A stretch of 64,000 nt of DNA from assembly GCA_030432295.1 (NCBI GenBank), contig JAUIHI010000007.1:124001-188000 (forward strand), given 5' to 3'. Positions 5,943-63,434 of this stretch are shown here, in pieces. The position numbers and the translations under genes are program-made. Numbering within the stretch: the first letter of the stretch is position 1; each line of letters begins with the position of its first letter. Below the pieces are notes generated by a model, which had not been told where the DNA came from, did no database searches, and saw only the letters and a list, made by a program, of their open reading frames with translations. Source of the DNA: Anaerolineae bacterium (GTDB taxonomy: Bacteria; Chloroflexota; Anaerolineae; Caldilineales; Caldilineaceae).

Positions 5943-7172
5943 CTATCGTCCTCCCAAAGATTTTCGCGCCGATAGCGCGGTCTCTAACGCTTCTTCCACT
6001 GTCTCCGCGGTCACCGTCACGTGGCCCATTTTGCGCCCAGGCCGGGCCGCGGACTTTCCGTACAAATGCAGTTTGGCCGTGGGGTAGGCCAGCAGCGCAG
6101 CCCAGTCCGGTTCGCCCTTCGCCCACAGATCGCCAAGCAGATTGACCATCACAGCGGGCCGCACCTGCTCGGACGACCCCAACGGCAGCCCACAGACCGC
6201 CCGTGCCTGTTGCTCGAACTGGCTGGTCACTGCGCCCTCAATCGTCCAGTGGCCGGAGTTGTGGGGGCGGGGCGCGATTTCATTGATGAGCAGGCGACCG
6301 GAATGGGACGCGAATGATGCGGACGCAGATGACGCTGAAAAGATAGATTCACGCTGATTTTTTTTGGGCAGCAGGAAAAATTCCACGCAGAGAACACCTA
6401 CCACATCCAGCGCTTCCATCAGGCGGCGGGTTAGTTGCGCCGCTTCTGCCACCACTTCTGACGAAACCTGCGCGGGGGCGATTGTCACGTCCAGAATGTG
6501 GTTGGCGTGGCGGTTCTCCACCAGGGGAAAGGCGGCAAACGCGCCGTCGAATCCTCTTGCCGCCACCACCGACACCTCCCGCTCGAAGGGGACAAAAGCC
6601 TCCAGAATGGCGGGCTGTCCGTTCATCGCCTGCCAGGCGTCTTCGGCCTGGGACGGGTCGTCGATCTTCACTTGGCCTTTGCCGTCGTAGCCAAAAGCCG
6701 CGGTTTTCAGCACAGCAGGCGTGCCCAACTTCGCCAGTCCTGCCTGCAAATCGGCCAGCGAATGGACCAGCGCAAAGGGTGTCACCGGCAGTCCCGCCTC
6801 GGCAAAAAAGCCCTTCTCCCGCAGCCGGTTCTGGGCCACGTGCAGAACGTGACCGCCGGGTCGCACGAGTTTGCCCTCTTCCGCGGCAATCTCTGCCACG
6901 TGGCTGGGCACATTCTCAAACTCGAAAGTCACCGCGTCCACACCCCGCACAAACGCCCGCACAGCGTCCTGGTCGTCGTAGGATACACAGATTTCCTGCG
7001 CCGCCACCTGTCCGGTGGGCGTGTCGCGCTCTGGCGAAAAGGTATGCACCCGAATCCCCAGCGGGTGCGCGGCCAGGGCCAGCATCCGCCCTAACTGGCC
7101 GCTGCCGAAAACCCCAATAACTGGGGGGGACTGGAGATTGGGGATTAGGGATTGGGGATTGGGTGTGGACAA
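5943..7172 (-). CDS. purK: 5-(carboxyamino)imidazole ribonucleotide synthase
   Basis: PurK carboxylates AIR to N5-CAIR using ATP and bicarbonate; PurE, encoded just upstream, takes the product. Seen: 'GVFGSGQLGRMLALAA' near residue 20, 'VTFEFENVP', ATP-grasp residues in 'ILEAFVPFEREVSVVAAR', and 'NEIAPRPHNSGHWTIEGA'. Two parts look alien. The first 17 residues ('MSTPNPQSLIPNLQSPP') are encoded by a heptamer repeat at the purE junction. About 23 residues around position 275 ('NQRESIFSASSASAS') are encoded by another intergenic-type repeat inside the C-terminal half. Both keep the frame. The start at 7172 is 3 bp after the purE stop. Confidence 0.94.
   Translation of the reverse strand: MSTPNPQSLIPNLQSPPVIGVFGSGQLGRMLALAAHPLGIRVHTFSPERDTPTGQVAAQEICVSYDDQDAVRAFVRGVDAVTFEFENVPSHVAEIAAEEGKLVRPGGHVLHVAQNRLREKGFFAEAGLPVTPFALVHSLADLQAGLAKLGTPAVLKTAAFGYDGKGQVKIDDPSQAEDAWQAMNGQPAILEAFVPFEREVSVVAARGFDGAFAAFPLVENRHANHILDVTIAPAQVSSEVVAEAAQLTRRLMEALDVVGVLCVEFFLLPKKNQRESIFSASSASASFASHSGRLLINEIAPRPHNSGHWTIEGAVTSQFEQQARAVCGLPLGSSEQVRPAVMVNLLGDLWAKGEPDWAALLAYPTAKLHLYGKSAARPGRKMGHVTVTAETVEEALETALSARKSLGGR
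6307..6362. repeat. 'aatcagcg/ctgcgtc'-family repeat inside purK
   Basis: Read on the minus strand this is a run of 'aatcagcgtgaatc... tcagcgtcatctgcgtccgcatcattcgcgtcc'-type words seen elsewhere in the window only between genes (14033, 20247, 60258). It inserts a Ser/Ala-rich stretch between 'FFLLP' and 'GRLLINEIAPRPHN' of PurK without breaking the frame. Confidence 0.7.
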
Positions 7173-8031: not shown

Positions 8032-9015
8032 TCAGAACATCCACGCCTCTAGATTCCACTTAATCCGCGGACCCGCGGGATATTCCCCCGGCTCGAAGAA
8101 CTTGCCCGTCAGCATCTCATACGTGCGAATGTAACGCTCTGCCGCCTGCACGGCCAGCGCTTCCGGCATGGGAAACGGCTCGCCCTCGCCCCGGTAGCCG
8201 TGGGCCGCATAATAAAGCCGGATGAATTCCTTATCGAAATTCTCCGGCTCTCTTCCCTCTGTGTTCTCTGTGCCCTTTGTGGTTAATTGTTCGTAGCTCT
8301 CCGCTGTCCAGAAACGGCTGGAATCGGGGGTGTGCATCTCGTCGATCAGCACCAGTTCCCCCTCGTCGGTTAGACCGAATTCATATTTCGTGTCCACCAG
8401 AATCAGCCCACCCCGCCGGGCGATCTCCTGCCCCCGCTGGAAGACGGCGATGGCCGCGGCGCAGACCTGCTCCCAGAGCGCGGCGGGGACCAGCCCCCGT
8501 TCCACGATTTCGGCGCTGGTGATGCGCTCGTCGTGGCCGCCGTCCTGGGCTTTGGTCGTCGGTGTGATAATCGGTGTGGGCAGCGCGTCGTTCTTCTTCA
8601 ATCCGTCGGGGAAGTCCATCCCGTAGATGTTGCGCTCGCCCTGACTGTAGCGATACCAGAGCGCGGTGGAGGTGACGCCGCTGATGTAGCCGCGCACGAC
8701 GACTTCCACGGGAAGGGGACGACACTTGCGCCCAATCGTGACATTCGGGTCTGGGGATTCGATGAAGTGGCTGCCAACAATATCCGCCACCTGTCCAAAC
8801 CAGAAGGCTGCCAGTTGGTTGAGCACCTGGCCTTTGTAGGGAACCAGCCCCAGAATCCGGTCGAAGGCCGAAAGCCGGTCGGTGGTGATCAGTACCAGTC
8901 GGTCGTCCAACTCGTAGATATCCCGCACTTTGCCCTGGCGTTTTGTGCCTAGGAAGGGCAGGTCTACGCCCTCAAAGGGGTGGGCCAGCGCGCGCTCAAT
9001 CAGTGTCTTTGTCAT
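8032..9015 (-). CDS. purC: Phosphoribosylaminoimidazole-succinocarboxamide synthase
   Basis: PurC condenses CAIR with aspartate. The 327-residue length and motifs match the longer, yeast-like SAICAR synthetases: 'GKVRDIYELDDRLVLITTDRLSAFD', 'PLPVEVVVRGYISG', 'DTKYEFGLTDEGELVLIDEMHTPDSSRFW'. After that motif there is an in-frame insertion 'LTTKGTENTEGREPEN' encoded by an 'aaccacaaagggcacagag'-type repeat (8250-8284). The start overlaps the upstream membrane-protein gene by 20 bp. Confidence 0.96.
   Translation of the reverse strand: MTKTLIERALAHPFEGVDLPFLGTKRQGKVRDIYELDDRLVLITTDRLSAFDRILGLVPYKGQVLNQLAAFWFGQVADIVGSHFIESPDPNVTIGRKCRPLPVEVVVRGYISGVTSTALWYRYSQGERNIYGMDFPDGLKKNDALPTPIITPTTKAQDGGHDERITSAEIVERGLVPAALWEQVCAAAIAVFQRGQEIARRGGLILVDTKYEFGLTDEGELVLIDEMHTPDSSRFWTAESYEQLTTKGTENTEGREPENFDKEFIRLYYAAHGYRGEGEPFPMPEALAVQAAERYIRTYEMLTGKFFEPGEYPAGPRIKWNLEAWMF
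8250..8284. repeat. 'accacaaag' octamer-type repeat inside purC
   Basis: On the minus strand: aaccacaaagggcacagag followed by aacacagaggga, the same word family as the intergenic palindromes at 17086, 52068 and 63368. It encodes about 12 residues of low complexity (TTKGTENTEG) in the PurC C-terminal region. Confidence 0.75.
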
Positions 9016-9577
9016 CGGTCTTTTTCTCGGAAAGTTTGCGGGAGGTTCGTCGCCGTTTTGGCGCTGATCCTTCCTTAAAGCGCGGCTTCATTAGATACAT
9101 ATCTGGTGAGAGGCGGCGCAAAACTGGCTCCAGATCATCGTCGTCCCAATCGTCAATCTCTTCATTCTCTGCTGCACCATTGGCAATCATTTGTGAAAAG
9201 AGGAAGAGGGCCAATGCACCTACGACCGCCACCAGCAAGGAGGCTTCCCAAACTGCAAGTGGGGTCGGCCACGCAACCAGGCGGGCCAGAAGGACTTCAC
9301 CGACGGCAATCAGTGCTCCAGCCCCCAGCCCCATCAACAAGAGTAGGATGTCAAAGGCAGGTATCCGGGCTGCGATCAGAATTGTGCTGCCCGCGATGAT
9401 GACTGCCAGGATCGTCGCTTGCAGAAAAGTCAGTGGGGCAAGCAGAGAGAGAAGCCAGGCCAAGCCAAGAAAATAGATGAGTGCCACAGAAAGTGCAATC
9501 AGTCCACCCACTACAACAATCAGAATGGTGCCTGTGACACTCATATCTTCAATTTCGGGTTCTGGTTGTTCACGCAT
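8996..9577 (-). CDS. Four- to five-span membrane protein of unknown function
   Basis: A 193-residue protein. Residues 12-135 form hydrophobic segments (about 12-40, 42-70, 73-98, 110-132), followed by a charged cytoplasmic-looking tail with '[13 protein letters not shown]' and a Lys/Arg-rich C-terminus. No family is recognised. It overlaps purQ by 8 bp and purC by 20 bp, so it is translated within the purine operon, but nothing in the sequence ties it to purines. Confidence 0.8.
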
Positions 9578-10376
9578 TGATCAGCGCCTCAAACAGAGAA
9601 AGACCCAGACCTCCCCGGCTCTTGACTGGACTCTGGATCGCTGTTATGTGATCCTCCGGGTGGGGCATCAGACCGACCACATTGCCAGCCGCGTTGCAGA
9701 TACCGGCGATGTCAGCCACACTGCCGTTGGGGTTCACCGGATAGCGTCCGCCCGCCGGGTTGCCGTCCCCATCCACATAGCGGAAGGCGACCAGCCCGCC
9801 CTTTTCCAAACTCCCCACCGTCGCTTCGTCCGCAGCCTGGAAGTTGCCCTCGCCGTGGGCCACCGGGCAGAAAATCGGCTCCCGGATGGCGGAGAGGAAA
9901 CTGGCCTTTGCGCTGCCATTGACTGCCAAATAGACCCAACGGCATTCAAAGTGGCCGGATGCGTTGTGGGTGAGGGTGACGTTGCGAGTTGCGAGTTGCG
10001 AGTTGCGCAGGCCGTCATCCGTCTGCGGTCCGCTGTCCGCCGTCGGCTGTCCGGGGAGAATCCCCGCCTTCACAAGTGTCTGGAAGCCGTTGCAGATGCC
10101 CAGTACCCGCTTGCCGCTGGCGACAAATTCGTGCAACTGATCGTTGAAAAAGACGTGCATATCCAGAGCCAGACGCACGCCAGCGCCCAGCGCGTCGCCA
10201 TAGGAGAAGCCGCCGGGCAGGATTAGAGCGTCGTAGTCGGCGAAGCGTCGTTCCCCGGCCCGCAGTCGGTTGATGTGGACGATTTCGGGCGCGCCGCCAG
10301 CTAATTCACAGGCCCGGGCTGCTTCGCCGTCCCGGTTCGTGCCGGATGCGTGGAGAATGAGAATTTTTGGTTTCAC
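9570..10376 (-). CDS. purQ: FGAM synthase subunit I (glutamine amidotransferase)
   Basis: PurQ supplies ammonia to PurL for FGAR to FGAM. Seen: '[14 protein letters not shown]', nucleophile in '[22 protein letters not shown]' (Cys about residue 98), and the His-Glu pair in 'GLMPHPEDH'. Start is a GTG at 10376, 3 bp after the PIN-gene stop. Between 'LPG' and '[15 protein letters not shown]', about 25 residues ('[20 protein letters not shown]') are encoded by two heptamer arrays and are absent from ordinary PurQ. The product has 268 residues. Confidence 0.95.
9981..10055. repeat. Two heptamer arrays inside purQ
   Basis: Positions 9981-10008 are four tandem copies of gttgcga/c. Positions 10014-10055 are six degenerate heptamers (gtcatcc, gtctgcg, gtccgct, gtccgcc, gtcggct, gtccggg). 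The 7-bp period is maintained although it is out of step with codons; the total length keeps the PurQ frame. Confidence 0.88.
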
Positions 10377-10379
10377 GAG

Positions 10380-10799
10380 TCAATTCACCGTTCGAATTTT
10401 TTGCAGGAAGTCGTCGGGTGTTACGACTTCAAATGCAGATGACTGAAGTTGTCTTAGAAAATGACGGTTATCGGAGAGCAGAAAATCGAGTTCCTGCCAT
10501 TCCGTAAATCCGCCGATGAAAGCGTCAGCTTTGGCAGGCAACCCCAATCTGCCGTACTTTGTAACAAAGCGAGTCGGCACCGGTTCGTCAACAATACGGG
10601 CAAACTCAAACGGAACAAACAGGCGATAAAAGTTCCGTACTTGCTCAGGGGTCGACAGATTGCGTGCAACTTCCTGAGCAACAAGACGCGGAATGAATAA
10701 CCGGATACTTGGGCCAATTTTGTCCAGAACAGATGCAATCACTGGGTCTTGTGTACGCAGGCCACGGATGAATACACAGCTATCGATACAGATGCGCAT
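10380..10799 (-). CDS. PIN-domain toxin-like ribonuclease
   Basis: A 139-residue PIN protein. Seen: 'MRICIDSCVFIRGL' (first acidic residue Asp6), 'VAQEVARNL' (second acidic position), and 'KADAFIGGFTEWQELDFLLSDNRHFL' with the late Asp residues. PIN toxins of this type cleave RNA and are held by a small antitoxin. It overlaps the upstream antitoxin-like gene by 20 bp and ends 3 bp before the purQ GTG. The pair is embedded between purL and purQ. Confidence 0.85.
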   Translation of the reverse strand: MRICIDSCVFIRGLRTQDPVIASVLDKIGPSIRLFIPRLVAQEVARNLSTPEQVRNFYRLFVPFEFARIVDEPVPTRFVTKYGRLGLPAKADAFIGGFTEWQELDFLLSDNRHFLRQLQSSAFEVVTPDDFLQKIRTVN

Positions 10800-11061
10800 A
10801 CTCCGCCTCGAAAATTTCTTCTCGGGAACGTCTGGTTAACGCAACGATCTCCTCAGCCGTTGAATCTGGCAAAACTCCGCCCTCCTCCTGTACTTGGGCG
10901 CGTAAATCCTCCCAGCCCTGTTGCCACAAGCGACGCTGGCGGACTTCCTCGACCCACTCTGTGATAATAGCAACCGGGTCTTGATGAGCTTCGCTTGCCA
11001 GTTCTGCCAGGTCCGCATACAGACTAGCGGGTAATTGAAGTGTTACTGTTTCTGCGCTCAC
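10780..11061 (-). CDS. Antitoxin-like partner of the PIN protein
   Basis: A 93-residue protein starting at a GTG at 11061, chosen because GGAAGGAAAG lies just upstream and an earlier ATG would overlap the purL end. The N-terminal 'TVTLQLPASLYADLAELASEAHQDP' looks like a ribbon-helix-helix DNA-binding segment; the C-terminal 'LPDSTAEEIVALTRRSREEIFEAEYAHLYR' could wrap the toxin. It is inferred to be an antitoxin from its size, fold pattern and overlap with the PIN gene. Confidence 0.75.
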   Translation of the reverse strand: MSAETVTLQLPASLYADLAELASEAHQDPVAIITEWVEEVRQRRLWQQGWEDLRAQVQEEGGVLPDSTAEEIVALTRRSREEIFEAEYAHLYR

Positions 11062-11105
11062 AATTACTTTCCTTCCATCACAGGCGCTAGGTTCCAGCCA
11101 CCAAT

Positions 11106-14015
11106 TCAGGCAACTTGCCTCTTCCATGCATTTACCAACTCATCCACCGCCAAATCGATCACCGACTCGCCTTCTAATTCTACCACCAAACGGCTGTCCG
11201 CGCTGACTGTGCCGATTTCGACCAGAGGCAGCCCGGCGAAGTGTTCTTCCAGCGTGGTCACGTCCTCCGTCTTCACCTCCACCAGCAGCCGCCCATTGCT
11301 CTCGCTGAACAGCGCTTCCACAGGCGAAAGTTCGCCATTCGCTATTCGCAACTCGCTATTCGCAACTCGCACACCCAGCCGCCCCCCAATCGCCATCTCT
11401 GCCAGGGCCACCGCCAGCCCGCCTTCGCTCAGGTCGTGACAGCTTTGCACCAGATCGGAACGAATCGCGTTGTGCAGGGCTGTGTAGCGGGCCAGGGGTT
11501 CGTTGGGCATTTGGGGCGGGTCGCCGCTGTCGATGCCCAGCAGGGAAAAGAGCAGAGAGCCGCCCAACTCAGCGGCTGTGTCGCCGATGAGATAGAGCCG
11601 ATTGCCCGGGGCTTTCAGGTCGCTGGTGCAGGTATGTTCGATATCCGGCACAATGCCGATGGCGGAGATAAGCAGCGTGCCGGGGATCGGCTCGCCGTTG
11701 AATTCGTTGTAGAGGCTGTCTTTGCCGGAGATGAAGGGCGCATTGTAGGCCAGGCTGCCGTCGTAGCAGCCCTGGGCCGCACGCACCAGTGTGCCCAGCC
11801 GATCCCGCAGTTTGGGATTGCCCCAACAGAAGTTGTCCAGCAGTGCGATCTGGTCCGGGTCTGCGCCCACGGCCACCGCATTGCGGAAAGCCTCATCAAT
11901 GGCGCTGACGGCCATCGCGTAAGGGTCCCGCTTGCCCAGCAGGGGATTGATGCCGTTGCTCAGACAGAAGGCTTTGTTGTGATGCCAGGTTCCCAGGGGT
12001 TTCAACACTGCGGCATCCGCGGGGCCGTCCATCTCTGGCCCGGTGAAGGGACGGACGAGCGTGCCGCCCCGCACTTCGTGATCGTAGGTGCGCACGATCG
12101 CCTCTTTGCTGGCTACGGACGGATGAGAAAGGAGAGTCAGCAGCAGGTTGGAGAGGTTAGAGATTGGGGATTGCGCGTCGGCGGCCAATTTTACCAACTC
12201 TGCCCGCCAATCTTTAATCGCAAAATTCTTGTCCCGATATTCCGCCTGCATCTCCGTTCCCGGCCAGCCGTCGTGGAGGAATTTCATGCCCAAATGGGCC
12301 ACCGGTCGGCCCAGATAATTGACGTGCAATTCGCCGTCGCCGGTGAAAATGCCCAGCACCCGCATCTCCACATCCCAGCCGTCGGCCAGTTCTTGCAGGC
12401 GGGGCAGATTTTCTTCGGGCACGGCCAGCACCATTCGCTCCTGGGCTTCAGAAATCCAGATTTCCCAAGGGGTGAGGCCAGGATATTTGAGGGGTACTTC
12501 GGAAAGCTCGACCTCCACGCCCAGCTCCTTGCCCATTTCGCCGCAAGCAGACGACAGCCCGCCCGCGCCGCAGTCTGTGATGGCGGTGTAGAGCTGCTCG
12601 TCTCGGGCCGCTTCGATCAGTTCGATCAGCCCTTTTTCGGTGATGGGGTCGCCGATCTGCACTGCGCTGCCCGATTTTTCGCTGGTCTCGTGGGTCAGTT
12701 CGGCAGAGGAAAAAGTGGCCCCGTGCAGCCCATCCCGACCCGTGCGCCCGCCCAGGACCACCACCCGATCGCCCAGTTGGGGTTCGGTAGGGTGGCTGTC
12801 CCGGGGCAGCAGACCGACGCAACCGGCGAAAACCAGCGGGTTGCCCAGATAGCCCTCGTCGTAGATCACCGCGCCGTTGACCGTCGGCAGCCCCAATTTA
12901 TTGCCGTAATCGCCGATACCCGCCACCACTCCTTCCCGGATGCGGGCCGGGTGGAGCAGACCAGCGGGCAGTTCGCTCTGGGGGAAGTCCTGGGGGGCAA
13001 AGCAGAGCACATCCGTGCAGGCGATGGGCCGGGCCGAGACGCCGATGATGTCACGCACAACGCCGCCGATGCCTGTGTTGGCCCCGCCGAAGGGTTCGAG
13101 CGCGGAGGGGTGGTTGTGGGTCTCCACTTTGAAGGCCAGGTCGAAGTCGTCGTCAAAGGCGATGATGCCCGCGTTGTCCACAAAGGCCGAGCGCAGCCAG
13201 GGGCGGTCGACCGCTTCGGTGGCACGGCGCAGATAGTAGCGCAGCATCCCCGGCACTTCGCGCACCACACGAGTGTGACGTTCCAGACTGATCCAGCGGA
13301 AAATAATTTTAGAGCGGAATGTCTTGTGGACGCAGTGCTCGCTCCAGGTCTGGGCCAGGGTTTCCAGTTCCACGTCGGTGGGGTCCCGCTCCATCTCGGC
13401 GAAATAGTCCTGAATGGCCTTCATCTCCGGGCCATCCAGCGAGAGCAACCGCTCGCCGCTCAGGGCCACCAGAGATTCTTCGTCCAATCCAGAAAGGCTG
13501 ATCGATTCCACAAAATCGCTGGCCGCGCTCTCCTGGTCAAACTGGGGTGGGATGGGGCCAAGGGTATAGTGTTCGATGGTTTCGTTGCAGAGCAGCCCCT
13601 GGGCCAGCCGGTGCAGATCGCCTTCGCTGAGATCGCCTTCCAATTCGTAGCGGGTGGCGGTGGCTGCATGGCTGATGGATAAACCCAATTCAGCCATTCC
13701 CCGCTCCAACTCCCGCGCGGCCACATCCGTCACGCCGGGGCGCAGGGCCACTTCGACGACGTGGGCGTCCTGCGCGGCAGCGGGCGGCATTTCCCCCGCG
13801 GAGAGATCGTCCCAGCGGGCGGCCTCTGTCACCAGGTCAGCCAAAAGAAAAGCACAGAGCCGGGAAAGCTGCTCTGTGCCTGGGTCTTCTGCCAGAAAGT
13901 ACAATTTGCTGGTGCGGCAGGAGTGCACGGCGTCGATTCCCAGCCGTTGAGCCTGCTGTACAATCTGCACGCCGCCGTCCCCGCGTCGGGGCGAAACTTC
14001 GATACGAATAGCCAT
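11106..14015 (-). CDS. purL: FGAM synthase, PurS-PurL fusion
   Basis: A 969-residue protein, longer than the roughly 740-aa small PurL. The first 160 or so residues contain PurS-like segments ('[20 protein letters not shown]' and '[19 protein letters not shown]'), so the PurS bridge to PurQ seems fused to PurL. The synthetase core follows: '[12 protein letters not shown]', '[27 protein letters not shown]', '[16 protein letters not shown]', '[11 protein letters not shown]'. ATG at 14015 has AGAGGAAAG upstream. Two heptamer arrays add '[10 protein letters not shown]' (about residue 620) and '[13 protein letters not shown]' (about residue 890). The gene heads the purine cluster, behind tRNA-Glu. 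Confidence 0.95.
11331..11372. repeat. Heptamer array inside purL (3' part)
   Basis: Six tandem heptamers: ttcgcca, ttcgcta, ttcgcaa, ctcgcta, ttcgcaa, ctcgcac. They encode '[15 protein letters not shown]' in the C-terminal PurL domain, between 'EMAIGGRLG' and '[12 protein letters not shown]', where ordinary PurL has no such extension. Confidence 0.88.
12145..12179. repeat. Heptamer array inside purL (middle)
   Basis: Degenerate heptamers aggttgg, agaggtt, agagatt, ggggatt. They encode '[12 protein letters not shown]' just before the conserved '[22 protein letters not shown]' segment. The same 'QSPI/ISNL' peptide recurs in the proteins at 31967 and 38694. Confidence 0.78.
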
Positions 14016-15704: not shown

Positions 15705-15995
15705 ATGAACTGGATATGGGAGGAAAGAAAGAACGCCATCAATCGGCGGAGGCACAGGCTCAGCTTCGAGACGGCATCTCTGGTCTTTGACGATCCGTTT
15801 GCTGCCAGCCGCTCCGATCACTACCCCTATGAGGAACGGTGGCAGACAATCGGTGCTATCGGAAATGTCGTTATACTCGTCGTGCATACGCAGCCGGTGG
15901 TGGATGAGTTGACAGGGGAAGAAACGGGACGGATCATTAGCGCCCGAAAAGCCACTGCCCACGAGAGGAAAATCTATGCAGAAGGCGATTTCTAA
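15705..15995 (+). CDS. brnT: BrnT-family ribonuclease toxin
   Basis: A 96-residue BrnT toxin, a RelE-fold ribonuclease. Seen: 'WEERKNAINRRRHRLSFETASLVFDDP', 'EERWQTIGAIGNVVILVVHT' and the closing 'RIISARKATAHERKIY', which is the family signature with conserved Arg/His/Tyr. The ATG at 15705 has AGGAGG eight bases upstream. The 3' end overlaps brnA by 20 bp. Confidence 0.93.
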   Translation: MNWIWEERKNAINRRRHRLSFETASLVFDDPFAASRSDHYPYEERWQTIGAIGNVVILVVHTQPVVDELTGEETGRIISARKATAHERKIYAEGDF

Positions 15996-16281
15996 GCAAC
16001 TTACCCCAGCACAGCAGGCCGAACTTGCCGCGCTGGAAAATATGCCGGATGAGGCGATAGATACGCAGGATATACCCGAAACAGCCGACTGGAGCGATGC
16101 AAAACGGGGGGTATTCTATCGACCGGTCAAACAGCAGATCACCCTACGGCTAGACGCTGATCTGATTGATTGGTTCAAAAACCAGGGTGAATCCCCGACG
16201 GGCAGAGGCTACCAGACCCGCATCAATCTCGCGTTGCGTGAATACGTCGCTCACTATACTGTAGATGATTCATCGGAATGA
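15976..16281 (+). CDS. brnA: BrnA-family antitoxin
   Basis: A 101-residue antitoxin. The centre 'DWSDAKRGVFYRPVKQQITLRLDADLIDWFKNQGE--GRGYQTRINLALREYV' is the BrnA pattern: a toxin-neutralising first half and a ribbon-helix-helix C-terminal half that binds the promoter. It overlaps brnT by 20 bp with its own GAGAGG site. Its stop codon directly abuts the stop of the convergent aldolase gene, leaving no room for a terminator. Confidence 0.92.
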   Translation: MQKAISKQLTPAQQAELAALENMPDEAIDTQDIPETADWSDAKRGVFYRPVKQQITLRLDADLIDWFKNQGESPTGRGYQTRINLALREYVAHYTVDDSSE

Positions 16282-17064
16282 TCAGTCACATCCGCAATCT
16301 TCTGCCTGGTGGTTGACCCCACAGACCACACAGATGTCCTCGTACTGGCCGGGACGCAACAGCCCCTGCTGCTCCCGCCAGGCTACCAGTTTGTCCACTT
16401 CGCCCTGGGGCAAGGGTTCCGGGCGGCGCAGTTCGTAGACAGTCTTGGTGATCTGTGCGGCCTGCTCCAGCTTTTCCAGACGCAGATAGGCTTCCAGCAC
16501 CGAGCCACCGACGGTAACGCTGCCGTGGCGTTGCAGGACAATCGCGTCGTAGCGTTTGATCAGTTCCCGGATCACCTCGGCCCCTTCCTGGCTGGCGGGG
16601 GTGGCGTAATCGCTGGTGGGGATCAGCCCCAGCCCCAGCACCACATCGGGGATTAGACAGTGGGCCAGGCTGATGCCGGCGATGCTCAGGGCGATGGCCG
16701 TGGGCGGGTGGGCGTGGACCACCGCGTCCACATCCGGGCGCTGGCGGTAGGCTTCCAGATGGAGGAGCATTTCGCTGGTGGGGCGCAGATAGCGCTTCGG
16801 CCCGTAGCTGGGGCCAACCACATCCACATTCGAGTCCACAATAATCAATTCGTCGGGCTGGATCAGCCCTTTGCTGTAGCCAGAGGGGGTGCAGAGAAAG
16901 CGATCCGGCCCCAGGCGCACGCTCACATTGCCATCGTTGGCTGCCACGTACTGGCGCTGCCACAGCATCTGGCATACCTGAACGATCTCCTGGCGGAGTT
17001 GCTGCTCACTCTTGCGCGCTTTAGGCGCTGCGCTGCGCTGATACCGAATCAGTGTCTCACTCAC
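16282..17064 (-). CDS. Class II aldolase/adducin-family protein, microcompartment-linked
   Basis: A 260-residue class II aldolase. Zinc-site histidines are seen in 'VVHAHPPTAIALS' (about 118-130) and 'VLQRHGSVTVGGS' (about 180-192); 'SVRLGPDRFLCTPSGYSKG' matches the substrate-binding N-terminal half of fuculose/rhamnulose-phosphate aldolases. The C-terminus carries an extra Cys-rich tail 'DICVVCGVNHQAEDCGCD', unlike ordinary aldolases. It is the last gene of an operon with two EutN/CcmL vertex proteins, which suggests an encapsulated aldolase cleaving a sugar phosphate into DHAP and lactaldehyde (inference). Confidence 0.85.
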   Translation of the reverse strand: MSETLIRYQRSAAPKARKSEQQLRQEIVQVCQMLWQRQYVAANDGNVSVRLGPDRFLCTPSGYSKGLIQPDELIIVDSNVDVVGPSYGPKRYLRPTSEMLLHLEAYRQRPDVDAVVHAHPPTAIALSIAGISLAHCLIPDVVLGLGLIPTSDYATPASQEGAEVIRELIKRYDAIVLQRHGSVTVGGSVLEAYLRLEKLEQAAQITKTVYELRRPEPLPQGEVDKLVAWREQQGLLRPGQYEDICVVCGVNHQAEDCGCD

Positions 17065-17085
17065 GGACTGCTCCTACCTCATTTG

Positions 17086-17148
17086 AACCACAAAGACACA
17101 AAGACACGAAGAACAGCTTTTCCTTTGTGTCTTTGTGCCTTCGTGGTT
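17086..17148. repeat. 'aaccacaaagacac' palindrome
   Basis: Left arm 17086-17111 (aaccacaaagacacaaagac acgaag) and right arm 17123-17148 are nearly perfect reverse complements built from an 8-bp unit. It fills the gap between the aldolase start and the stop codon of the first vertex protein. Related copies at 52068-52132 and 63368-63434, and one inside purC. Confidence 0.85.
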
Positions 17149-17431
17149 ACTGTTCAATTTCGATGTCGTCCACAATTCCTACAATCACCGCCCGTACAGC
17201 GCCCTGGCCCGGTTCGGCTTTCTGGCCGAGAATCTGCTTGGCCCCGCTGCCCTCGTCCATCACCAGCACAGTATCGCCCACACCAGCCTGTACACTGTCC
17301 ACGCAGATGTCGTACTTGGGAGTGGGTTGACCGTCCACCCCCTGCATTTCGACCAGCAACAGTTTGTGGCCGTCGAAAGTGGGATGCTTGACTGTAGCGA
17401 CGACCGTCGAGACAACTTTGCCGATGTACAT
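17147..17431 (-). CDS. EutN/CcmL-family microcompartment vertex protein 1
   Basis: A 94-residue BMC-P protein. The pattern 'IGKVVSTVVATVKHPTFDGHKLLLVEM' and 'CVDSVQAGVGDTVLVMDEGSGAK' followed by 'AVRAVIVGIVDDIEIE' matches pentameric proteins that cap the corners of bacterial microcompartments. Its ATG overlaps the stop of the second vertex gene (TGATG). No hexameric BMC-domain shell gene is in the window, so any shell would need genes elsewhere. Confidence 0.9.
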   Translation of the reverse strand: MYIGKVVSTVVATVKHPTFDGHKLLLVEMQGVDGQPTPKYDICVDSVQAGVGDTVLVMDEGSGAKQILGQKAEPGQGAVRAVIVGIVDDIEIEQ

Positions 17432-17742
17432 CAGGCCACCGCCTCAGACCTGCCGGGTTTCGGAAAACCCGGCAGGTCTGTCGAAATTTCGTCCACAATG
17501 CCCACAATCGCCAAATCGACCGGCGCAAAGGTGCGCTCCAACGCCTGGGCCGCTTCCCGGCTGGCGATGAGCATCACCCGCTCGCCCACCCCCGCCTGCC
17601 CAGTCGCATCTGCGGCGATCTGAGGCTGGCCACTGGGCGCGCTGTGGCGGTCCAACAGCTGGACGACGAGGAGTTTCACCCCGTCCAGATTGGGCGCTTT
17701 GTGGGTGGCGATGAGGGTACCGATAACCTGGCCCAACTGCAT
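17431..17742 (-). CDS. EutN/CcmL-family microcompartment vertex protein 2
   Basis: A 103-residue BMC-P protein: 'LGQVIGTLIATHKAPNLDGVKLLVVQLLD', 'GQAGVGERVMLIASREAAQ' and 'DLAIVGIVDEIS'. The family normally ends at about this last segment; the extra 'TDLPGFPKPGRSEAVA' is encoded by a palindrome (17446-17479) that elsewhere serves as a terminator. Translationally coupled to the first vertex gene. Two divergent vertex paralogues are common in real microcompartment loci. Confidence 0.9.
   Translation of the reverse strand: MQLGQVIGTLIATHKAPNLDGVKLLVVQLLDRHSAPSGQPQIAADATGQAGVGERVMLIASREAAQALERTFAPVDLAIVGIVDEISTDLPGFPKPGRSEAVA
17446..17479. repeat. 'agacctgcc' hairpin read as coding sequence
   Basis: Perfect 15-bp arms at 17446-17460 (agacctgccgggttt) and 17465-17479 with a 4-bp loop. 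It is nearly identical to the fabD terminator at 60373-60406, but here it lies within the 3' end of a vertex-protein gene. Confidence 0.88.
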
Positions 17743-20367: not shown

Positions 20368-21171
20368 ATGACCACTCCACCACCCGAAGCCGATCTGCTC
20401 CTGCTGCTCGCCGTTGTCCTGCCGCCCCGCGCGCTAGACGCGCTCGGCCCCGTTGTGGATGAACGCTTTGTCAGCACCACCTACGGCGACATCGGCCCGT
20501 TGGCTCTGCGCCGCAGCCCCAGCGGGCGCGGGGTGTGGGTGCAGCCCTACAACGGCCTGCCCAGCCGCACGGATCCCCGTTCCACATTGCTGGCTGCGCG
20601 CAAGCTGGGCGTGCAACGGGTGCTGAACTGGGATACGGCGATTGCGCTCAACCCGCTCCTGGCCCGGGGGCACGTGGCGATTGTGACCGATTACATCGAT
20701 TTTGTGCGCCACCAGCCCCATACTTTTCTGGAAAGCGAAGGCATTACCGGCATCCACCAGTCGCCACCCATCTGCCCGCAGATGAGCGAGAGCCTCTCCC
20801 GGGCATTGCCTATGGCGCCCGGTGTTGTCTATGTGGGGGTGGATGGCCCCCGGCGGGAGACAGCCGCCGAGGCCCGGATGTTTCGCCAGTGGGGTGGCGA
20901 CGTGCTGGGCTACAATCTGATCCCAGAGATCGCGCTGGCCGGGGAGCTGGAACTCTGCTACGCGGGGGTAGTGACAGTTGTCAATGCCAGCGCCGACCGC
21001 TTCTCTGTCCCGGTGGAGGGAGAGACCCGAATCGGCCTGGAAGTGGTGCTGGATGCGCTGCCCCGTTTTGTAGAAATGCTGGCCGCACCAGCCACCTGCG
21101 GCTGTTCCGAACGGTTGAGCGCGCCTCGCAAACGGGGCACACTGGCCAACGATTGGTGGTCGGCCAAATGA
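20368..21171 (+). CDS. MTA/purine phosphorylase-family protein
   Basis: A 267-residue protein of the nucleoside phosphorylase fold, closest in pattern to S-methyl-5'-thioadenosine phosphorylase: 'LLAARKLGVQRVLNWDTAIALNPLL', 'AIVTDYIDFVRHQPHTFLESEG', 'YVGVDGPRRETAAEARMFRQWGGDVLGYNLIPEIALAGELELCYAGVVTVVN'. The last stretch aligns with 'P-ETPAE---F---G-D-VGM---PE---A-E---CYA'. It is shorter at the N-terminus than typical MTAP, and the usual 'GTG-G' phosphate loop is not evident, so substrate is uncertain. It overlaps the next gene by 4 bp (ATGA). Confidence 0.75.
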   Translation: MTTPPPEADLLLLLAVVLPPRALDALGPVVDERFVSTTYGDIGPLALRRSPSGRGVWVQPYNGLPSRTDPRSTLLAARKLGVQRVLNWDTAIALNPLLARGHVAIVTDYIDFVRHQPHTFLESEGITGIHQSPPICPQMSESLSRALPMAPGVVYVGVDGPRRETAAEARMFRQWGGDVLGYNLIPEIALAGELELCYAGVVTVVNASADRFSVPVEGETRIGLEVVLDALPRFVEMLAAPATCGCSERLSAPRKRGTLANDWWSAK

Positions 21172-52067: not shown

Positions 52068-52132
52068 AACCACGAAGGAAAAGCACTGGTTTGATCTTCT
52101 CTTCTTCTTCGTGTCTTTGTGCCTTCGTGGTT
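52068..52132. repeat. 'aaccacgaagg' palindrome
   Basis: aaccacgaaggaa (from 52068) pairs with ttcgtgtctttgtgccttcg tggtt (to 52132), with a loose loop. Same family as 17086 and 63368. Lies upstream of the CoA-binding gene. Confidence 0.75.
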
Positions 52133-63367: not shown

Positions 63368-63434
63368 AACCACGAAGTCACGAAGTCACAAAGAAAAGCA
63401 AAAAAGCCCTTCGTGTCTTTGAGTCTTAGTGGTT
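63368..63434. repeat. 'aaccacgaag' palindrome between sufR and sufC
   Basis: aaccacgaagtcacgaagtc on the left and cttcgtgtctttgagtctta gtggtt on the right. Third intergenic copy of the family at 17086 and 52068. It lies within the sufR-sufC transcript. Confidence 0.8.

What the first reader, a model, noticed from the sequence alone, without database searches (positions are those of the whole stretch)
16282..17742. Two vertex proteins and an aldolase without hexameric shell genes
The operon encodes two BMC-P proteins and a class II aldolase with methylglyoxal synthase and glucokinase, but no BMC-H or BMC-T gene occurs in 64 kb. It may be a satellite locus of a fucose/rhamnose-type microcompartment, or vertex-like proteins may have another use. 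The aldolase has a Cys-rich C-terminal tail (four Cys in the last 17 residues), a candidate targeting or metal-binding extension.
Basis: partly seen in the sequence, partly recalled or inferred. Interest (0 to 1): 0.6.

Follow-up and report, generated by a model that had tools for sequence, protein, structure and literature searches.

The report
Detached module of a bacterial microcompartment
Three genes for two shell-corner proteins and a sugar-phosphate-cutting enzyme sit apart from the rest of a protein-shelled bacterial compartment whose main genes lie on another contig; this split arrangement is already described for related compartments, so the finding is largely ordinary.

Summary
Window 16282-17742 (-) encodes a class II aldolase and two EutN/CcmL-type vertex proteins (BMC-P), and no BMC-domain gene lies in the window. 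The genome is not shell-less: contig C29 carries a main locus with BMC-H, a CcmP-like BMC-T, a tandem BMC-T, its own BMC-P, acylating AldDH and DeoC. In 150 same-class genomes, the 55 with BMC-P are exactly the 55 with BMC domains. A tree splits BMC-P into three orthogroups: the main locus holds P1, the window pair are P2 and P3. In about ten relatives P2-P3-aldolase directly follow BMC-T, several within a full main operon. The module is therefore a detached part of one compartment, as Sutter et al. [quoted passage not shown] The fucose/rhamnose label is not supported. Glucokinase, oxidoreductase, methylglyoxal synthase and phosphorylase are independent neighbours, syntenic in BMC-free or satellite-free relatives. 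The Cys tail is real: CxxCxxC recurs in BMC aldolases of many phyla, often before an encapsulation-peptide-like helix; the window copy lacks the third Cys and that helix. The substrate is unproven.

The parts
16282..17064 (-). class II (FucA/DrdA-like) sugar-phosphate aldolase, predicted cargo enzyme of the microcompartment
   Evidence: PF00596 E=2e-44; active-site motifs (GN.S, TPSG, SSE/TSE, HAHP, RHG) invariant or nearly so in 20 BMC-linked relatives; AlphaFold2 model with well-predicted core, mean pLDDT 84.9
16285..16335 (-). Cys-rich C-terminal tail (residues 244-260, ICVVCGVNHQAEDCGCD); C245/C248 belong to a conserved CxxCxxC motif whose third Cys is N251 here; C257/C259 are lineage-specific
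   Evidence: alignment of relatives; residues 250-260 have pLDDT under 50
17147..17431 (-). BMC-P vertex protein, P3 orthogroup of the BMC-P triplet
   Evidence: PF03319 E=2e-23; placed in the 'third of three' clade of the BMC-P tree
17431..17742 (-). BMC-P vertex protein, P2 orthogroup of the BMC-P triplet
   Evidence: PF03319 E=4e-25; placed in the 'second of three' clade, 49 rows, 100/94 support

Best explanation
The three genes are a satellite (fission) module of one HO/SPU-like metabolosome in a Caldilineaceae (Chloroflexota) genome. Its main locus on contig C29 encodes BMC-H, a CcmP-like BMC-T(dp), a tandem BMC-T, BMC-P1, acylating aldehyde dehydrogenase and deoxyribose-phosphate aldolase. 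The window supplies the other two vertex pentamers (P2, P3) and a second aldolase. Proposed working: sugar phosphates enter the shell; DeoC and the class II aldolase cleave them to a triose phosphate plus a short aldehyde; the AldDH in the same shell turns the aldehyde into acyl-CoA before it escapes. Shown here: gene content, orthology of P2 and P3, co-occurrence with shell genes, integrated arrangement in relatives. Inferred: co-assembly, cargo status of the aldolase, and the reaction.
For: Main locus on C29 with BMC-H, CcmP-like and tandem BMC-T, BMC-P, AldDH, DeoC. The closest solved natural protein to its BMC-H is the H. ochraceum shell protein HO-5815. The pair lies about 98 kb from the nearer end of a 240-kb contig, so the separation is not a contig-break artefact. 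BMC-P and BMC-domain genes occur in the identical 55 of 150 same-class genomes. The BMC-P tree has three orthogroups, with the window pair in P2 and P3. P2-P3-aldolase directly follows BMC-T in about ten relatives, several with AldDH upstream. Homologous aldolases in many phyla mostly sit beside BMC genes. Of 10 genomes with a CxxC-tailed aldolase away from shell genes, 9 encode BMC domains elsewhere, against 3 of 18 for tail-less homologues (Fisher p about 3e-4). Sutter et al. 2021 describe the same satellite for type I HO BMCs (PMC8217296).
Against: No expression, proteomic or microscopy data. The window aldolase lacks the C-terminal encapsulation-peptide-like helix seen in many relatives, and the own AldDH as called lacks the N-terminal one seen in a relative, so loading would need another element. 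One same-family genome (G097) has a main locus but no P2/P3/aldolase. The genome has no PduL and no RpiB, so the core is incomplete compared with SPU loci. The Fisher test is not corrected for relatedness.
Confidence: 0.88

Rival explanations
1. Satellite of a fucose/rhamnose (PVM/GRM5-type) microcompartment: the aldolase cleaves fuculose- or rhamnulose-1-phosphate to DHAP and lactaldehyde.
For: Class II aldolase of the FucA/OtnC superfamily; the same Pfam is the signature of PVM and GRM5 loci (PMC4207490, PMC8217296).
Against: Matches are far below every FucA equivalog cut-off. No fucose isomerase C-domain hit over cut-off in the genome. The main locus has DeoC and a EutE-like AldDH, and no PVM-type gene set was seen. 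Rhamnose isomerase was not searched.
Confidence: 0.08
2. The BMC-P pair has a function outside a shell (orphan vertex-like proteins).
For: No shell gene within the 64-kb window.
Against: BMC-P and BMC-domain genes co-occur perfectly in 150 genomes; the pair groups with P2/P3 proteins encoded inside full shell operons.
Confidence: 0.02
3. The operon is one pathway: methylglyoxal synthase, oxidoreductase, glucokinase, phosphorylase and aldolase together feed the microcompartment.
For: Same strand, short gaps or overlaps from mgsA through to the BMC-P genes; the phosphorylase is divergent next to mgsA.
Against: None of these neighbours recurs beside P2-P3-aldolase in about 20 other genomes. pnp-gfo-glk is syntenic in BMC-free G136 and pnp-mgsA-gfo in satellite-free G097.
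Confidence: 0.07
4. The aldolase acts in a DHAP shunt: it splits 5-deoxyribulose-1-P or methylthioribulose-1-P, from 5'-deoxyadenosine or MTA, into DHAP and an aldehyde inside the shell, with an adjacent MTAP-like phosphorylase and the genome's MtnA. (This specifies the substrate within the satellite reading.)
For: MTAP-like phosphorylase gene 20368-21171 nearby; MtnA present, TIGR00512 over cut-off; a FucA-like class II aldolase is the third enzyme of the known pathway and releases acetaldehyde (PMC6079011), which suits an EutE-like AldDH.
Against: Phosphorylase and MtnA are not linked to the module in any other genome examined; the phosphorylase scores well below MTAP cut-offs and is syntenic in BMC-free relatives.
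Confidence: 0.1

Closest known systems
Satellite locus of type I HO (Haliangium ochraceum-type) BMCs, Sutter et al. 2021 (PMC8217296)
   Same: Two BMC-P genes plus an aldolase, distal from a main locus that has BMC-H, BMC-T(dp), one BMC-P and AldDH; the block sits in the main locus of other members (type II HO).
   Different: The host is Chloroflexota rather than the best-known myxobacterial case; the main locus here carries DeoC. The authors' HMM-based typing could not be run.
SPU (sugar phosphate utilization) BMCs
   Same: DeoC aldolase, AldDH and CcmP-like BMC-T(dp) in the main locus; some Anaerolineae are reported to carry SPU6.
   Different: RpiB (pfam02502), a signature shared by all SPU subtypes, was not found in the genome; an additional class II aldolase is present.
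ACI, PVM and GRM5 BMC class II aldolases
   Same: pfam00596 aldolase in BMC loci; ACI is described with a C-terminal encapsulation peptide and a BMC-P triplet.
   Different: The window enzyme has a Cys motif but no C-terminal encapsulation-like helix, and the main locus is of another type.
DrdA / DHAP-shunt aldolase (5-deoxyribulose-1-P)
   Same: FucA superfamily, expected DHAP plus aldehyde products.
   Different: No linked MtnA or sugar kinase; no microcompartment is mentioned in the DrdA paper read.

Membership tests
BMC satellite locus (definitions of Axen 2014 and Sutter 2021) | shell genes of one kind only (PF03319 or PF00936, not both), contiguous | tested here: met
   two adjacent PF03319 genes, no PF00936 on the contig
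BMC satellite locus (definitions of Axen 2014 and Sutter 2021) | a non-satellite BMC locus elsewhere in the genome | tested here: met
   C29 locus with BMC-H, BMC-T and BMC-P
HO-type BMC | BMC-P triplet | tested here: met
   three BMC-P genes falling in three orthogroups
HO-type BMC | CsoS1D/CcmP-like BMC-T(dp) and an AldDH | tested here: met
   NF053796 CcmP 354 bits over cut-off 340; AldDH subfamily PRK15398 over cut-off; matches to HO BMC-T structures
HO-type BMC | assignment by the catalogue's locus HMM scores and AldDH branch | not testable with these tools
   supplementary HMMs and trees not available
SPU BMC | DeoC (pfam01791) | tested here: met
   TIGR00126 281 bits, cut-off 117
SPU BMC | RpiB (pfam02502) | tested here: not met
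   no hit in the whole genome; controls ring
PVM/GRM5 fucose-rhamnose BMC | class II aldolase pfam00596 | tested here: met
PVM/GRM5 fucose-rhamnose BMC | fucose/rhamnose pathway genes in the genome | tested here: inconclusive
   fucose isomerase C-domain only below cut-off; rhamnose isomerase not searched
DHAP shunt aldolase (DrdA/Ald2) | linked MTA/5dAdo phosphorylase or kinase and MtnA-like isomerase | tested here: inconclusive
   MTAP-like phosphorylase nearby but divergent; MtnA on another contig
DHAP shunt aldolase (DrdA/Ald2) | activity on 5-deoxyribulose-1-P | not testable with these tools
   needs an enzyme assay

The most novel reading that the evidence does not exclude
The CxxCxxC tail is an unrecognised, cross-phylum signature of microcompartment class II aldolases, possibly a metal or Fe-S site or a loading element. 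In this lineage, where the encapsulation helix is gone, the tail itself would anchor the enzyme in a shell that salvages deoxy sugars such as 5-deoxyribose.
Probability: 0.12. Interest if true: 0.55.

Novelty: new member of a known kind. Interest (0 to 1): 0.25.

Why it matters
It shows that an apparently shell-less vertex operon is explained once the whole genome is read: the shell's three vertex paralogues are split between two loci. The useful residue is the Cys-tailed aldolase family. Its tail goes with the presence of a microcompartment in the genome even when no shell gene is nearby, and it gives a testable handle on how this aldolase is loaded and what it cleaves.

Tried and rejected
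Orphan BMC-P function: rejected by the perfect co-occurrence with BMC domains in 150 genomes. Contig-break artefact: rejected because the pair lies deep in a 240-kb contig. A functional link to glucokinase/MgsA/Gfo/PNP: rejected by synteny in BMC-free and satellite-free relatives and absence of recurrence. Conserved extra enzymes beside the module: none beyond shell genes, AldDH and a PduS/RnfC-like protein (several shared clusters there are antisense reading frames of the same genes). An NCBIfam scan of a whole locus failed because of stops; it was repeated on the gene. The AlphaFold model does not resolve the tail. Promoter/terminator scans gave near-chance counts and were not used.

Full report
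What is there. The window is G000:C49:124001-188000 of a 6.72-Mb, 61-contig genome. On the minus strand, 16282-17064 is a class II aldolase (PF00596, E=2e-44), and 17147-17431 and 17431-17742 are two BMC-P proteins (PF03319, E=2e-23 and 4e-25). Upstream in the same direction are glucokinase, a Gfo/Idh/MocA oxidoreductase and methylglyoxal synthase; an MTAP-like phosphorylase is divergent; a BrnT/BrnA pair converges on the aldolase. No BMC domain is in the window. The aldolase of a 'Caldilineaceae bacterium isolate Ww71' record is 96% identical, so the host is most likely a Caldilineaceae member of Chloroflexota.

The missing shell. A whole-genome search finds three BMC-domain hits, all on contig C29, and three BMC-P genes, one on C29 and two in the window. 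The C29 locus (L008) reads, all on one strand: DeoC 12884-13687, a small protein, a CcmP-like BMC-T(dp) 11873-12499, BMC-H 11439-11735, inorganic pyrophosphatase 10888-11430, an MBL-fold hydrolase 10148-10885, BMC-P 9864-10151, AldDH 8470-9867, a YbjN-like protein, a Menorin-family protein and a tandem BMC-T 6312-6917. The CcmP-like protein was missed by the PF00936 search but passes the NCBIfam CcmP cut-off. Among solved natural structures the BMC-H is closest to HO-5815 of Haliangium ochraceum. The genome therefore has a complete shell set plus two detached BMC-P genes. The window genes lie about 98 kb from the nearer contig end, so this is a true separation.

One compartment, two loci. In 150 genomes drawn from the same class, 55 have PF03319 and 55 have PF00936, and they are the same 55. 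I fetched 40 neighbourhoods. In about ten of them BMC-T is followed by two BMC-P genes and then the aldolase, in several cases downstream of AldDH in the main operon (for example L043, L052, L062, L065, L066). In eight others the two BMC-P genes plus aldolase stand without other shell genes nearby, as in the window; some of these contigs are short. A tree of 135 BMC-P domains has three groups that correspond to gene position: first (main-locus) BMC-P, second, and third. The window's upstream BMC-P falls in the second group and the downstream one in the third, while the C29 BMC-P falls in the first. The window pair therefore complete a triplet and do not duplicate the main-locus vertex protein. 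Resolution inside groups is low because only 88 columns were used.

What is not part of it. Glucokinase, oxidoreductase, methylglyoxal synthase and phosphorylase do not recur next to the module. In the same family, genome G136 has no BMC genes but keeps phosphorylase, oxidoreductase and glucokinase in the same order, and G097, which has a main locus with a single BMC-P and no satellite, keeps phosphorylase, MgsA and oxidoreductase. The BMC module most likely came to lie downstream of an older, unrelated cluster; it may be co-transcribed with it, which is untested.

The Cys tail. The last 17 residues of the aldolase hold C245, C248, C257 and C259. Across relatives the conserved element is CxxCxxC; in the window protein the third Cys is Asn251, and the CGC end (C257/C259) is shared with the near-identical record L085 but not with the other Anaerolineae orthologues aligned. 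In many relatives, including Nitrospinota, Eisenbacteria, Firmicutes and other Chloroflexota, the motif is followed by a linker and a short amphipathic helix of the encapsulation-peptide kind; the window protein ends before it. Among genomes where a CxxC-tailed homologue is not next to shell genes, 9 of 10 still encode BMC domains elsewhere, compared with 3 of 18 for tail-less homologues (Fisher p about 3e-4; not corrected for relatedness). The tail is thus a marker of microcompartment aldolases, not an absolute one: 28 of 76 shell-adjacent homologues lack the CxxC, a few of them because the contig ends. The structure model has a confident core and a low-confidence tail, so metal binding and targeting both remain open.

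Mechanism. By analogy with studied metabolosomes (PMC8217296, PMC4207490) the aldolase should produce an aldehyde that the shell retains for AldDH. DeoC gives acetaldehyde from deoxyribose-5-phosphate; the AldDH belongs to the EutE-like subfamily. The class II aldolase's substrate is not decided. The genome lacks RpiB and PduL and has no fucose isomerase over cut-off. It does have MtnA, which together with the MTAP-like neighbour leaves a DHAP-shunt role possible (PMC6079011), but neither gene is linked to the module elsewhere.

Comparison with what is known. Sutter et al. [quoted passage not shown] The window matches both statements. Formal typing as HO needs their HMMs and was not possible; SPU membership fails on RpiB. 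The finding is a new example of a known arrangement, with the Cys tail as the one element I did not find described in the papers searched.

Noticed in passing
window 17083-17148; also 52107-52129 and 63371-63423: Imperfect palindromic repeat built on CACAAAGACACGAAG lies between BMC-P3 and the aldolase and recurs twice in the window (9 pattern matches against 0.1 expected); it may be a dispersed hairpin element affecting expression of the aldolase.
   Followed up: partly
window 15705-16281 (+): BrnT/BrnA toxin-antitoxin pair converges directly on the 3' end of the aldolase gene.
   Followed up: no
L008:6977-7738 (-): A Menorin-family (PF10223) protein is encoded inside the main BMC locus between AldDH and tandem BMC-T; in relatives a PduS/RnfC-like protein occupies that position.
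   Followed up: no
G097 (L059): A same-family genome has the main BMC locus with a single BMC-P and no P2/P3/aldolase module, so the triplet seems dispensable.
   Followed up: partly
L065:605-1405 and L066:2925-3710: Reading frames just upstream of DeoC begin with an encapsulation-peptide-like helix (EEEIRRIVRRTLERM); they may be RpiB-type proteins, which would make those loci SPU-like, unlike the own genome.
   Followed up: no
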